A stretch of 54,212 nt of DNA from Bacteroidales bacterium. GTDB taxonomy: Bacteria > Bacteroidota > Bacteroidia > Bacteroidales > UBA932. Below, one piece after another: positions 3,282 to 54,212 of this stretch. The translations under genes and the position numbers were made by a program. The notes beneath the pieces were generated by a model. The model was not told the origin of the DNA. It worked only from the letters and a program-made list of their open reading frames with translations, and did no database searches. Each line of letters begins with the position of its first letter. Position 1 is the first letter of the stretch. The stretch covers positions 1 to 54,212 of the forward strand of contig JAFRXC010000087.1 in assembly GCA_017437825.1 (NCBI GenBank), read 5' to 3'.

Positions 3282-3376
3282 GGTTTTTGCAAAAATCTTG
3301 TTGTTTTTTTTGTAACGATTTCATATATTGCAAGTTGGAAAAGAAATCTATCGAAAACCATTAAATAATTTGTTTT

Positions 3377-3553
3377 ATGAAAAAACTTGTAGCTAAAATC
3401 AAAGAAGAGATCGCAGCTTTTGAGGTAAACGCTGAGGCTCAGGTAGTTAAGGGAAACAAAGCTGCTGGCGCTCGCGCCCGTAAGGCTGCTCTTGCCCTCA
3501 TGAAAGACCTTAAGGAATTCCGCAAGGTTTCTGTTGAGGAAGCTAAGAAGTAA
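3377..3553 (+). CDS. Histone H1-like small basic protein (Hc1 family)
   Basis: A 58-residue Lys/Ala-rich protein, short enough to be missed by a 60-residue cut-off. It reads MKKLVAKIKEEIAAFEVNAE, then GNKAAGARARKAAL and ends in KVSVEEAKK. The GNKAAGARAR core and overall length match the small Bacteroidota proteins of the Hc1/histone-H1 family, presumed nucleoid-associated. It has its own upstream region (3282-3376, A/T-rich, with a poor TATATTG match to the -7 box) and a strong terminator downstream at 3630-3661. DNA binding is inferred from charge and family only. Confidence 0.85.
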   Translation: MKKLVAKIKEEIAAFEVNAEAQVVKGNKAAGARARKAALALMKDLKEFRKVSVEEAKK

Positions 3554-48329: not shown

Positions 48330-49433
48330 ATGAAACGTATACTCTTTTTAGCATTGACTGCCGCCGTACTGTGTTCCTGCGGCGGTAAGAAAGACGAGAT
48401 TCCAGGACTGAAGGATTTCATAAAGAATGACTTCAAGATTGGTGTTGCTGTTATGCCTTCTTCCCTCGTCGGAGAAGAAGGAGAGATGATCAAGAAGCAT
48501 TTCAACTCGATGACTGCCGAGAACGTGATGAAACCGGCCAACGTAATCCGCCCGGACGGATCCTACGACTTTACAGAGGCCGACAAGATCATCGCTTTCG
48601 CCCAGGAAAACGGTATCAAGATGCGCGGCCACACTTTGGTATGGCACGGATCCACCCCCAGAGGCTATATGAACGATGCCGAAGGCAATCCTCTGACCAA
48701 AGAGCAGGTGATGGCAAAGCACGAGAATTACATCAAGGCCGTGTTCGACCATTATCCCAAGGATCTCATTTACGCCTGGGACGTTGTTAACGAGGCTCTT
48801 GCTGACGAGCCGGGCGAAACCATCTACCGCACCCGCTCCCCCTGGTACCAGGCTTTCGGAGGCCCCGAGTTCATCGAGTGGGCTTTCAAGACAGCAAAGA
48901 AGTATGCTCCTGAAGGATGCGAACTCATTTACAACGACTATAATCTGGTAGATCCCGCCAAGTTGGAAAGGGCTTGCACAATGCTCAAGGATATGCTGGC
49001 AAAGGGAGTTCCCATCGACGGCGTAGGTATGCAGGCTCACTGGGACAACTCTGTTACACAGGAGCAGATCCAGAATGCAATCGACAGGTTCTCAGCCCTT
49101 GGACTGGATGTCCAGATTACGGAGCTTGACCTTACCTGCTTCGACAATTATCACGGACCGGGAGCAGCAGAGCGCCAAAAAATCAGGCAGTCCGTTCAGT
49201 ATACCACCGAGCTGGCAGATGCACAGGCAGAGCAGTACGCCAAGATATTCACCACTCTTCACAAGAATGCTGACAAGATATCTTCTGTTACTTTCTGGTG
49301 CCTGACAGACCGCAACAGCTGGCTGAACAACTTCACCATCAGGGGAAGGCTCGACTATCCTCTCCTGTTCGATGCCCAGAATCGTCCCAAGAAGGCCTTC
49401 TTCGCCGTAAAGGACGTCTACACCAAGAAATAG
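48330..49433 (+). CDS. GH10 endo-1,4-beta-xylanase lipoprotein
   Basis: Hydrolyses beta-1,4-xylan backbones, presumably at the cell surface. 367 residues with a lipoprotein leader (MKRILFLALTAAVLCSCGGK, Cys 17). GH10 active site: acid/base Glu 155 in YAWDVVNEALAD and nucleophile Glu 265 in DVQITELDLTCF, plus HTLVWHGSTPRGY, IYNDYNLVD and the barrel-closing VTFWCLTDRNSWLNNF. No carbohydrate-binding module and no SusC/SusD neighbours, so this is not a full polysaccharide-utilisation locus. A membrane AraC-type regulator is immediately upstream and a long perfect inverted repeat begins 7 nt after the stop. Confidence 0.94.
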   Translation: MKRILFLALTAAVLCSCGGKKDEIPGLKDFIKNDFKIGVAVMPSSLVGEEGEMIKKHFNSMTAENVMKPANVIRPDGSYDFTEADKIIAFAQENGIKMRGHTLVWHGSTPRGYMNDAEGNPLTKEQVMAKHENYIKAVFDHYPKDLIYAWDVVNEALADEPGETIYRTRSPWYQAFGGPEFIEWAFKTAKKYAPEGCELIYNDYNLVDPAKLERACTMLKDMLAKGVPIDGVGMQAHWDNSVTQEQIQNAIDRFSALGLDVQITELDLTCFDNYHGPGAAERQKIRQSVQYTTELADAQAEQYAKIFTTLHKNADKISSVTFWCLTDRNSWLNNFTIRGRLDYPLLFDAQNRPKKAFFAVKDVYTKK

Positions 49434-49440
49434 CTTCCAG

Positions 49441-49524
49441 GCAATAATACAGTACCGGGAGGTATGTCGCAACAAAGCAGGCTTAACGCCGAAAGCGACA
49501 TACCTCCCGGTACTGTATTATTGC
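49441..49524 (-). repeat. 84-bp element: perfect 30-bp inverted repeat around a conserved-core 24-nt loop
   Basis: Left arm 49441-49470 and right arm 49495-49524 are exact reverse complements (30 of 30). The 24-nt loop (49471-49494), read on the reverse strand, starts TTTCGGCG and contains GCCTG. It lies between the xylanase (7 nt) and rluA (16 nt) stop codons. A second element with a related loop ends the window. Confidence 0.9.
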
Positions 49525-49540
49525 TACTCAATGACGATGG

Positions 49541-50242
49541 CTATAAAACAGGCCAGGAAGAAGGGAGGGGGCAGGTGATGCTGAGGGGCTCTTTCCGAAC
49601 CGGGTGGATGAATTCTACGGTGCGGGCGTGGAGGCAGATGCCGCCGTCCGGATTGGAACGGGGGGCGCCGTATTTAAGATCGCCCTTGATGCAGCAGCCT
49701 ATGTGAGAGAGTTGGCAACGGATCTGGTGATGGCGGCCTGTCAGAAGTTCAACTTCCACCAGGTGGTATCGTTGCGTACTCTGAAGATAGCGGTAGTTAA
49801 GGCGGGCGAGCTTGGCACCGCGGGCGCCTTCATTGGTTACGAAAGACTTATTCACCTTCTCGTTCCGCGTCAGCCAGTTCTCCAACGAGCCCTGTTCCGG
49901 CTCGGGCTTGGCGCAGCACAGCGCCCAGTAGGTCTTGTGCACCTGCCCCTCGCGGAACATCTCTGACAGGCGCTCCAGCGCCTTGGAAGTCTTTGCGAAC
50001 ACGCAGATACCGCTTACAGGCCTGTCCAGACGGTGGGGGATGCCCATAAAGACCTTTCCGGGCTTGCCGTCCCTCTGGGCTATGAAAGCCTTGAGCGTCT
50101 CTGCCAGGCACTCGTCCCCGGTCTTGTCACCCTGTACTATTTCACCCACATTTTTACCGAAGACAATCAGATGGTTGTCCTCGTAGAGAATCCTTGCGGC
50201 TATGTCATTGAATTCTGCCTGCCCGAGTGTCCTGTATTCCAT
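49541..50242 (-). CDS. RluA family pseudouridine synthase
   Basis: Isomerises uridine to pseudouridine in rRNA or tRNA. 233 residues with the catalytic Asp motif in GIPHRLDRPVSGICVFAKTS, then YWALCCAKPEPEQG and the RNA-binding LLTGRHHQIRCQLSHIGC. No S4 domain, so closer to RluA/TruC-type than RluD; the exact uridine target is open. The start at 50242 follows a -7 box by 9 nt; the frame opens earlier at 50353 but that part crosses the promoter. Its end lies 16 nt from the long inverted repeat. Confidence 0.9.
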   Translation of the reverse strand: MEYRTLGQAEFNDIAARILYEDNHLIVFGKNVGEIVQGDKTGDECLAETLKAFIAQRDGKPGKVFMGIPHRLDRPVSGICVFAKTSKALERLSEMFREGQVHKTYWALCCAKPEPEQGSLENWLTRNEKVNKSFVTNEGARGAKLARLNYRYLQSTQRYHLVEVELLTGRHHQIRCQLSHIGCCIKGDLKYGAPRSNPDGGICLHARTVEFIHPVRKEPLSITCPLPSSWPVL

Positions 50243-50251
50243 AATACGGCA

Positions 50252-50259
50252 CAAAGATA
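50252..50259 (-). promoter_or_regulatory. -7 box for rluA
   Basis: TATCTTTG on the reverse strand, 9 nt before the ATG at 50242. Confidence 0.5.
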
Positions 50260-50371
50260 TGAATATCTGCCAAATTGTCATAAAAAAAGAGATGGCACAT
50301 CTTTCGATGCTATCCTTCACGTCGCATAATTGTGACAGATATGGACGAAACAAATAAAACAGAATAATATT

Positions 50372-52941: not shown

Positions 52942-54138
52942 ATGTCTGAAAAAAACGTTTATCTGCCGTCCAAACCCCGCTATGAGATCCTTGACGGACT
53001 CAGGGGCGTGGCGGCACTTCTCATTCTCATATTCCATATCTTCGAGGACGAGTCCACCCGCGGGCCTGCGTTCCAGCACCTCAACCACGGATACCTGGCA
53101 GTGGAATTCTTCTTCCTGCTGTCAGGATTCGTGATAGGATACGCCTACGACGACCGCTGGGACAAGATGACCCTCGGCGGATTTTTCAAGAGGCGTCTTG
53201 TCAGGCTCCACCCTATGGCCATAATGGCCACCTTCATAGGAGTGCTGCTGTTCTACCTGGGAGGCGACGGCTTCCGCCTGGTAAATGATGCTCCCGCGTG
53301 GAAGATGATAGTCTGCTTCGTCTGTGCCCTATTCCTCATTCCGCTGGGGCCGAAGATGGACATCAGGGGCTGGCGTGAGATGTACCCCTTCAACAGCCCT
53401 CTATGGACTTTGTTCTATGAGTACATAGCCAATATCTTATATGCGCTCTTTATCAGGAAACTCCCCAAATGGGCGTTGAGGATAATAGTGGCCCTTTTCG
53501 CGGTCCTTCTTCTTGACAGGGCGGTGGGTCTTGGCATTTTCGGTGGCTATACATACAATGTGGGAAGCATGGCAGGAGGATGGTCTTGGGACAAGGCCGG
53601 TATCTATACTGGTTTCGCACGGCTGCTGTTCCCATTCTTCTGCGGTCTCCTAATACAGCGCTCCGGAAAGATGATCAAGATCAAAGGCGCCTTCTGGTGG
53701 TGTGCCCTGGCACTTGCAATTATGCTTTGTATGCCTAGGGTGGGAGCCCCTCCAACCTTCGACCGCGTTACCAGGACAATGGATCCGGGCGGCTCTGTTT
53801 ACAACGGTATCTACGAGTTCTGCTGCGTTGTCTTGATAATGCCTCTCGTGATAATGGCGGGAGCCGGCGGTCAGATACAAGGAAAGAGCCTCAAGTTCTG
53901 CAAGCTACTAGGCGATATCTCATATCCGCTGTACATCACGCACTATCCCATTATGTATATGCACGTGCAGTGGCTCGCCAAGCATCCTGAGGCGCCGCTT
54001 GGACAGCATATCTACGTGGCCATCTCCATCTGCGTAATCTCCATCCTTGTGGCCTATGCCTGCTTCAAGCTATATGACGCTCCGGTTCGAGAGTGGCTCA
54101 AGAACCACTGGCTTAAGGCCAAACCCGACAAAGCTTGA
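52942..54138 (+). CDS. Acyltransferase family 3 membrane protein (OatA-like)
   Basis: Integral membrane O-acyltransferase of 398 residues. Opening YEILDGLRGVAALLILIFHI carries the family's RGxA..V-type region with the His, followed by HLNHGYLAVEFFFLLSGFVI and about ten helices. The C-terminal part has LGDISYPLYITHYPIMYMHV. Members acetylate peptidoglycan or surface glycans using acyl-CoA; the acceptor here is unknown, and there is no fused SGNH esterase domain. A long inverted repeat begins 24 nt after the stop. Confidence 0.9.
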   Translation: MSEKNVYLPSKPRYEILDGLRGVAALLILIFHIFEDESTRGPAFQHLNHGYLAVEFFFLLSGFVIGYAYDDRWDKMTLGGFFKRRLVRLHPMAIMATFIGVLLFYLGGDGFRLVNDAPAWKMIVCFVCALFLIPLGPKMDIRGWREMYPFNSPLWTLFYEYIANILYALFIRKLPKWALRIIVALFAVLLLDRAVGLGIFGGYTYNVGSMAGGWSWDKAGIYTGFARLLFPFFCGLLIQRSGKMIKIKGAFWWCALALAIMLCMPRVGAPPTFDRVTRTMDPGGSVYNGIYEFCCVVLIMPLVIMAGAGGQIQGKSLKFCKLLGDISYPLYITHYPIMYMHVQWLAKHPEAPLGQHIYVAISICVISILVAYACFKLYDAPVREWLKNHWLKAKPDKA

Positions 54139-54162: not shown

Positions 54163-54212
54163 GCTGGAAAATCGATTTCGGCGCGAGCCTGTTGTTATCT
54201 CGATTTTCCAGC
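54163..54212 (+). repeat. Second inverted-repeat element with the conserved-core 24-nt loop, at window end
   Basis: Arms 54163-54175 (GCTGGAAAATCGA) and 54200-54212 are exact reverse complements; the 24-nt loop 54176-54199 begins TTTCGGCG and contains GCCTG. The right arm finishes at the last base, so the stem could extend further. Confidence 0.8.

What the first reader, a model, noticed from the sequence alone, without database searches (positions are those of the whole stretch)
49441..49524. Perfect 30-bp inverted repeat whose loop, but not stem, is shared with a second element
Seen: a 30/30 inverted repeat flanks a 24-nt loop. The element at 54163-54212 has a different, perfectly paired 13-bp stem around a loop of exactly 24 nt. 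Read in the same orientation, both loops start TTTCGGCG, contain a GGC-(4-5 nt)-GCC mini-stem (GCGA, a GNRA loop, in one; GTTAA in the other), then TG and a T-rich run. In each case that orientation follows a stop codon by 16 nt (rluA) or 24 nt (acyltransferase). A conserved loop on divergent but perfectly self-complementary stems implies compensatory change or arm-to-arm templating. This is the opposite of REP or attC elements, where the paired ends are conserved. It may be a 3'-end RNA element or small mobile hairpin family; I know of no named one.
Basis: partly seen in the sequence, partly recalled or inferred. Interest (0 to 1): 0.82.

Follow-up and report, generated by a model that had tools for sequence, protein, structure and literature searches.

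The report
Mobile hairpins with freely changing stems
A small family of repeated DNA hairpins, found in one group of related rumen bacteria, keeps the same tip while the two sides of its long stem change together and stay matched, which makes it a natural record of how DNA copying may rewrite one arm of a palindrome from the other.

Summary
The window hairpin (49441-49524, 30/30 pairs, 24-nt loop) belongs to a dispersed family: 82 copies tabulated in five genomes that form one clade of rumen Bacteroidales. Among 395 other same-genus genomes, four gave one weak match each: one is a misbinned carrier contig, two look unrelated, one is open. The tip (inner stem plus a 22-25-nt loop with a GGC/GCC mini-hairpin) is conserved; the outer stem varies but stays paired (2069 of 2155 cells Watson-Crick). 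Copies sit at shared places, mostly between convergent genes, some in frame inside genes, while there the stem is replaced, doubly substituted, or the loop inverted. One site has empty counterparts in three relatives. Best reading: a REP-like mobile hairpin, one strand recognised through its tip, whose arms are kept complementary by template switching between arms plus selection. It lacks the GTAG tag, T-tract and any identified transposase. New variant of a known kind.

The parts
49441..49470 (-). Right arm of the hairpin as read on the loop (minus) strand; 30 nt, perfect complement of 49495-49524
49471..49494 (-). 24-nt conserved loop, TTTCGGCGTTAAGCCTGCTTTGTT on the minus strand
49480..49482 (-). 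GCC side of the mini-stem inside the loop (minus strand)
49488..49490 (-). GGC side of the mini-stem inside the loop (minus strand)
49495..49524 (-). Left arm of the hairpin as read on the loop (minus) strand
54163..54175 (+). Left arm of the second copy, part seen paired (13 nt)
54176..54199 (+). 24-nt loop of the second copy, TTTCGGCGCGAGCCTGTTGTTATC
54200..54212 (+). Right arm of the second copy, cut off by the end of the contig
48330..49433 (+). Convergent neighbour gene, 367 aa (xylanase-like by eye; no domain search run), stop 7 nt from the hairpin
49541..50353 (-).
52942..54138 (+).

Best explanation
The window holds two copies of a clade-specific, REP-like, non-autonomous mobile DNA hairpin of roughly 80-95 bp. 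Shown: it is a dispersed family with a conserved tip, a stem free in sequence but kept paired, recurrent placement between convergent stop codons or in frame in genes, presence against absence at one mapped site, and loop inversion between sister species. Inferred: one folded strand (the TTTCGGC strand) is recognised through the tip by a single-strand-type transposase that I could not identify. Also inferred: the arms are held complementary by replication template switching between arms (copying one arm from the other, and sometimes inverting the loop), with selection against broken hairpins acting as well.
For: Dispersed family in one clade. Unit size: of 51 pairs of similar copies at unlinked places, 26 share 27-40 nt on both sides of the loop and then diverge; the rest share less on at least one side or, in 5, more than 40 nt on a side. 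Covariation: 20 of 22 outer pairs change on both sides, 98.5% of cells paired against 64.6% in shuffles; RNAalifold predicts the same structure from the alignment alone. Arm co-evolution in 17 hand-chosen orthologous pairs with alignable stems: 20 double changes (10 transitions, 10 transversions) and 23 one-arm changes in 440 pair-sites. Loop inverted relative to the flanks in 3 of 22 orthologous site groups (my grouping), in two of them with the arms conserved. One-strand signal: G-U 40 against A-C 10 distinct events on the loop strand, p = 2.4e-5; where both genes run against the loop strand, 7 against 1 cells. Empty counterparts in three relatives. Published work: template switching homogenises inverted-repeat arms and inverts spacers (PMC8604942, abstract) and can fix pairing of existing stems (PMC8794818, abstract and opening text); TnpAREP binds one strand of a folded hairpin (PMC8266576, passages).
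Against: No transposase is tied to the family: the 12 Y1 loci matched in carriers bear other palindromes or none that I saw, and G001 gave no Y1 match. One-arm changes (23) are as common as double ones (20), so the correction is not instantaneous, and selection alone with GU intermediates cannot be excluded. The GU excess could partly be a mutational bias. At several shared sites the stems are unrelated, so replacement by new insertion or gene conversion also occurs. Only one of seven sites tested gave clear empty counterparts. Template switching itself was not observed.
Confidence: 0.58

Rival explanations
1. A 3'-end RNA element (bidirectional terminator or 3' mRNA protector) for convergent genes, whose stem is kept Watson-Crick because both strands are transcribed.
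For: 35 of 58 intergenic copies with a gene called on both sides lie between convergent genes and 0 between divergent ones, against 11 and 12 of 50 gene pairs in the window; often within about 25 nt of the stop codons; GU pairs are rare (50 of 2155 cells).
Against: No T-tract: at least 5 T in 8 nt after the stem in 1 of 80 and 2 of 81 cases; the T fraction is 0.22 and 0.32 on the two strands against 0.25 further out. Copies lie in frame inside genes. The same convergent pair lacks the element in G306, G308 and G335. Copies with both genes running against the loop strand still show more GU than AC on the loop strand (7 against 1 cells). This rival does not explain the conserved loop.
Confidence: 0.15
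2. Ordinary purifying selection on a structured mobile hairpin, with two independent compensatory mutations and no template switching.
For: One-arm changes and GU pairs exist; any structure-recognised mobile hairpin would show covariation.
Against: Half of the double changes are transversions (10 of 20), GU is only 50 of 2155 cells, a one-base indel appears in both arms (G001_C47 against G308_C22, read by eye; this pair was dropped from the totals), and loops invert between conserved arms.
Confidence: 0.22
3. A true REP family mobilised by one of the genus's REP-associated tyrosine transposases (RAYT), with a diverged tag.
For: Y1 matches in 4 of 5 carriers; REP-like siting; GGAG near the 5' foot in 29 of 81 copies; GGC/GCC mini-stem as in some GTAG-3 REPs.
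Against: GTAG near the 5' foot in only 7 of 81 copies; the Y1 genes are flanked by other palindromes or none seen; stems are longer than the 5-13 bp described.
Confidence: 0.3

Closest known systems
REP elements, GTAG and CGTC super-families (PMC3733652: abstract, section 5 and passages seen)
   Same: Dispersed palindromes downstream of genes and between convergent ORFs, some inside genes; alternative complementary stem residues; GTAG-3 loops with GGC/GCC termini set off from the stem by unpaired bases; inverted dimers.
   Different: Paired stem 18-34 bp in copies not cut by a contig end, not 5-13; loop 22-25 nt; no GTAG or CGTC tag; about 10-28 copies per genome; conserved tip, with the foot variable in G000 and G001; GU pairing rare.
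Rickettsia palindromic elements (known here from a passage of PMC3733652, otherwise recalled)
   Same: Palindromic repeats inserted in frame within protein genes.
   Different: Different host and sequence; most copies here are intergenic.
IS200/IS605 and TnpAREP single-strand hairpins (PMC8266576, passages seen)
   Same: Works-like only: one strand of a folded hairpin would be recognised; no clear target duplication.
   Different: No cognate transposase or guide motif identified.
Template switching between inverted-repeat arms (PMC8604942 abstract; PMC8794818 abstract and opening text)
   Same: Arm homogenisation and spacer inversion; patterns that fit both are seen here.
   Different: Described there in yeast coding DNA and in RNA genes; here in a bacterial repeat family at orthologous sites.

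Membership tests
GTAG-tagged REP | GTAG tetranucleotide at one foot of the palindrome | tested here: not met
   GTAG within a 16-nt window at the 5' foot in 7 of 81 copies and at the 3' foot in 4 of 80
GTAG-tagged REP | Stem 5-13 bp, short loop | tested here: not met
   Paired stem 18-34 bp (13 in the contig-cut copy), loop 22-25 nt over 82 copies; range for GTAG families from PMC3733652 section 5
GTAG-tagged REP | Multi-copy, mostly extragenic, downstream of genes | tested here: met
   82 copies; 35 convergent, 23 co-directional, 0 divergent, 19 inside an ORF of any size, 5 with one side missing (simple ORF caller)
GTAG-tagged REP | RAYT gene flanked by the same palindrome | tested here: not met
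   The 12 Y1 loci matched in carriers show other palindromes or none seen; genomes are incomplete and one search lists only matches at E <= 0.001
CGTC-tagged REP | CGTC (or variant) tag at one end | tested here: not met
   CGTC at the 5' foot in 4 of 81 and at the 3' foot in 10 of 80 copies; variants of the tag were not counted
MITE of a DDE insertion sequence | Conserved terminal inverted repeats | tested here: not met
   Outer arms vary between copies
MITE of a DDE insertion sequence | Target-site duplication | tested here: inconclusive
   One site against three empty counterparts: no longer duplication, but a 2-bp TG lies on both sides and the spacers differ between species; flanks of the tabulated copies show no consistent repeat by eye
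Intrinsic terminator | Stem followed by a T-tract | tested here: not met
   At least 5 T in 8 nt in 1 of 80 and 2 of 81
Rickettsia palindromic element (works like) | In-frame insertion in protein genes | tested here: met
   Open frames through the element in FolC-like genes of G001, G308 and G335, a methyltransferase-like gene of G306 and G308, and a pseudouridine synthase-like gene of G306; Pfam run on three of these six proteins
Known RNA family | Match to an Rfam model | tested here: not met
   0 matches at gathering score in the whole window
Single-strand transposon target | Binding and cutting of the loop strand by a transposase | not testable with these tools
   Only the indirect GU/AC asymmetry

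The most novel reading that the evidence does not exclude
A kind of mobile hairpin recognised by its tip instead of its foot: the protein sees the loop and the last ~8 stem pairs, so the rest of the stem carries no sequence information and is rewritten continually by arm-to-arm template switching, which also flips the loop. A second family in the same genus, with a different tip (TTTCTGCGTTACGCTTGAAAT and variants) and variable stems in seven other genomes, suggests that this is a general design.
Probability: 0.35. Interest if true: 0.74.

Novelty: new variant of a known kind. Interest (0 to 1): 0.57.

Why it matters
Orthologous copies in five related species show single-arm changes, double changes, a both-arm indel and loop flips side by side. 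This makes a long-standing question directly testable in bacteria: whether compensatory change in stems comes from selection on two independent mutations or from template switching in one event. It also warns that strong covariation is not by itself proof of a functional RNA, since a mobile DNA hairpin can produce it.

Tried and rejected
Viral carriage: a pattern scan of viral contigs gave 5 hits, none with a stem by eye. Wider spread: a pattern scan of genome contigs (84,980 species by the tool's description) gave 36 stretches; 23 with a stem all come from four Bacteroidales or Bacteroidia MAGs that are carriers, and 13 lack a stem. That pattern is narrow (AAAGTGC inner stem only) and the tool may leave out the window's own genome, so diverged relatives would be missed. 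Family-level model search: 3 of 398 genomes, all of them carriers. Searches over more than 40 genomes used stricter filters, and at most 12 candidates per genome were scored.

Weak model matches: G165 is a hairpin beside a tRNA-like end with another loop, and G127 has a short loop, so both were judged unrelated by eye. The G235 match had been printed from the wrong place; looked at again it is a true family copy on a 3.3-kb contig, and one search shows that this contig is 96% identical to G306 while G235 has its own 72%-identical counterpart elsewhere, so it is most likely a misbinned contig of the carrier clade. The G302 match (L067) has a partly paired stem and a TTTCGCCCGACAAGGCTGG loop and stays open.

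RAYT as cognate: the Y1 loci carry other palindromes or none seen. Empty sites: seven sites were sent and six compared (G335_C17_34769 was not compared further). Only G001_C33_12118 gave clear empty counterparts; at the G306_C6_63618 site G335 spans the junction at 78% identity and was not resolved; at the others only one flank matched.

Errors mended on the way: the first extraction of arms had a register error (redone, where one copy, L050, still showed its neighbour and was corrected by hand). In one search the G335 row was in the wrong orientation (redone). The regular expression missed two places that the model had found (G306:C28:20609 and G308:C65:398), so 82 is not the full count. G306_C2_40 and G306_C31_18494 lie at contig ends with nearly the same stem and might be one place.

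Dropped or hand-made steps: one search used 18 hand-chosen orthologous pairs with alignable stems; one was dropped from the totals by a preset limit (more than 10 changes); groups with fully replaced stems, among them most comparisons of the window element, were left out. The 22 orthologous groups and 3 inversions are my own grouping, and double sites are ambiguous for inversion. The 21 rows of the tree are the best matches. Gene contexts come from a simple ORF caller, and 'inside' includes small spurious ORFs.

Full report
Observation. The window element is as described: 30 of 30 pairs around a 24-nt loop at 49441-49524. The second element at 54163-54212 is cut by the end of the contig, because the window is the whole contig G000:C54, so its 13-bp stem is a lower limit. 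A loop pattern occurs 9 times in the 1.73-Mb genome and its reversed control 0 times. Six of the 9 have stems of 28-30 bp, one is the contig-cut copy, C87 is partly paired, and C18:22135 has no stem. A covariance model finds the hairpin places again plus C53, and a contig-end fragment at C28.

The family. With models built from 7 and then 19 copies, copies were sought in 400 same-genus genomes. G000, G001, G306, G308 and G335 have 9-12 matches each, with at most 12 candidates scored per genome; four others have one weak match each. Of these four, G235 is a true copy but sits on a 3.3-kb contig 96% identical to G306, while G235 has its own counterpart at 72% identity, so it is most likely misbinned; G165 and G127 look unrelated and G302 is open. 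An earlier sample of 61 genomes gave two weak matches in G029, which belong to another family (see below). A full scan of the five carriers gave 11, 15, 26, 28 and 15 rows, some being the reverse strand of the same place. From the fetched regions 82 copies were tabulated: G308 26, G306 25, G001 11, G335 11, G000 9; two further model hits were missed by that script. More exist at contig ends (G000:C28, G000:C91, G001:C31), so long hairpins seem to break assemblies and counts are low. The genus name is given by no call. In a tree of 21 dnaK fragments, the best matches, the five carriers form one branch with 100/99 support. They are the five best matches of the window locus by bit score among 400 genomes: 2011-4331 bits at 82-100% identity against at most 1335 bits; in the listed rows other genomes have 73-78% over the long stretch and up to 84% over dnaK alone.

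Anatomy. On the strand reading TTTCGGC the hairpin has a paired stem of 18-34 bp (13 in the contig-cut copy) and a loop of 22-25 nt. The loop is roughly TTT(C/G)GGC-N3-5-GCCT(G/C)-Y-W-TTGTN. GGC/GCC forms a mini-stem that never varies in 19 aligned copies and that RNAalifold predicts too; in the wider set a few copies depart from it, for example two in G335. A possible fourth pair across a bulged T is C-G in most copies and G-C in 12 of 15 TTTGGGC copies (by eye). The inner stem is also constrained: columns 16 and 21 of the alignment never vary; at 10 of the 22 stem pairs all four Watson-Crick pairs occur. In G306, G308 and G335 many copies have further feet (GGAGG......CCGGAGCG) with internal mismatches or a bulge. 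Of 51 pairs of similar copies at unlinked places, 26 share 27-40 nt on both sides of the loop and then diverge, 5 share more than 40 nt on a side, and the rest share less; one pair (G000_C61_35623 and G001_C3_2116) shares exactly the 29-bp stem. This sets the unit at roughly 80-95 bp.

Stem evolution. In the 19-copy alignment 98.5% of cells are paired, against 64.6% in column shuffles and 36-48% when the partner is slid; 20 of 22 stem pairs have double changes. Over 82 copies 2069 of 2155 stem cells are Watson-Crick, 50 G-U, 11 A-C and 25 other. Counting distinct events by cluster, position and pair, G-U outnumbers A-C on the loop strand 40 to 10 (p = 2.4e-5). Where both genes run against the loop strand the cells are 7 to 1, between convergent genes 17 to 8, where both run with it 12 to 2. 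An excess on the loop strand whatever the gene direction is what recognition of one folded strand would give, and does not fit a function only in the mRNA of the neighbours; the numbers are small. In 17 orthologous pairs with alignable stems there are 20 double changes (10 transitions, 10 transversions) and 23 one-arm changes in 440 pair-sites. Independent change at these rates would give about one matching double change (my estimate). One-arm changes are as common as double ones, so any correction is fast but not instant, and selection cannot be separated from templating by these numbers alone.

Position and inversion. Copies lie at the same places in several carriers while the element differs. 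The window element has counterparts in G306, G308 and G335 beside flanks 81-84% identical, with stems that I cannot align. G000_C61_21889 and G001_C50_16532 differ by four paired transitions. In G000_C12_10155 against G001_C60_458 and in G306_C5_1068 against G308_C22_6091 the arms are conserved and the loop is reverse-complemented relative to the flanks; in a third pair, G000_C53_15058 against G001_C98_20040, orientation and stem both differ. Template switching between the arms of inverted repeats is known to cause both arm homogenisation and spacer inversion (PMC8604942, abstract) and can fix pairing of existing stems (PMC8794818, abstract and opening text). Patterns that fit both occur here.

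Surroundings. Of 82 copies, 35 lie between convergent genes, 23 between co-directional genes, 0 between divergent genes, 19 inside an ORF of any size and 5 lack one neighbour; the window's own gene pairs are 11 convergent, 12 divergent and 27 co-directional (120-aa threshold). Several of the inside cases look like real genes: FolC-like in G001, G308 and G335, methyltransferase-like in G306 and G308, pseudouridine synthase-like in G306, all open through the element. Pfam was run on three of these six: PUA and methyltransferase domains on either side of the element, a pseudouridylate synthase domain after it, and Mur ligase domains on either side. At the G001_C33_12118 place, G306, G308 and G335 have the same convergent genes a few bases apart with no element; a 2-bp TG lies on both sides of the element in G001, so a very short duplication cannot be excluded; G000 has a 1.38-kb insert with a loop-only remnant. 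No T-tract follows the stems.

Mobiliser. Y1 transposase matches occur in 18 of 25 genomes tested, 16 of them over the curated cut-off, among them four of five carriers. The 12 carrier loci matched are flanked by other palindromes or by none that I could see, and not by this family, apart from one copy 1.4 kb away inside a neighbouring gene. The mobiliser is therefore unknown; that it acts on single-stranded DNA is an inference from the strand asymmetry.

A sister family. The two weak matches in G029 led to a second tip, TTTCTGCGTTACGCTTGAAAT and variants. It was found 18 times in 7 of 400 genomes (reversed control 0 in the rows listed), none of them carriers of the first family. Its copies have variable stems, largely paired over 12-25 bp in most and over only 6-9 bp in three, often with an inner AAAAGG/CCTTTT.

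Verdict. This is a new, clade-limited, REP-like family with an unusual division of labour between a fixed tip and a free stem. What is known accounts for the kind; what is unusual is the length and freedom of the stem and the record of arm co-evolution and loop inversion at orthologous sites. In the held library I looked for prior descriptions with two searches on REP/RAYT and palindromic repeats in Bacteroidetes or Bacteroidales and one on in-frame palindromic elements; none of the listed titles and abstract openings describes this family.

Noticed in passing
L101 (G306:C35) 2004-2069 and 3347-3412: Each of these two in-gene hairpins has a bare copy of its loop 59 nt upstream with the same apical triplet (TTT with TTT, TCC with TCC), although the triplets differ between the two places.
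   Followed up: partly
82-copy table: Apical triplets are species-biased: TTT in 10 of 25 G306 copies and 0 of 26 G308 copies, GGA in 6 of 25 and 13 of 26 (counted by eye), even at some orthologous places; suggests concerted change within a genome.
   Followed up: no
L131 (G308:C66, around 2300-2400 of the contig): At the place of the G306_C37 hairpin, G308 keeps the left arm and then carries a different family copy: a half-element.
   Followed up: no
L181, L183, L186, L187, L190, L191 (Y1 loci of carriers): RAYT-like genes carry their own palindromes (for example TGCTCCTTCCG..CGGAAGGAGCA), whose stems also vary but stay paired.
   Followed up: no
L306-L323 (G029, G092, G267, G315, G403, G407, G410): Second hairpin family with a different conserved tip, TTTCTGCGTTACGCTTGAAAT, and variable stems.
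   Followed up: partly
L118 FolC-like gene and flanks of several G306 and G308 copies: Another short repeat (GATCCTTCGCT..GCTCAGGATGAC) is common and is read in frame as VILSEAKDL in the FolC-like gene of G308.
   Followed up: no
window 54212; G000:C28 end; G000:C91 end; G001:C31 end: Several contigs end inside a copy of this hairpin, so these palindromes appear to break assemblies.
   Followed up: partly
L042 (G000:C78:12060-12083): Loop-only remnant without arms beside a 1.38-kb insert at the place where G001 has a full hairpin and three relatives have nothing.
   Followed up: yes
L066 (G235:C29:405-471): A family copy in a genome outside the clade lies on a 3.3-kb contig 96% identical to G306, most likely a binning error in that MAG.
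   Followed up: yes
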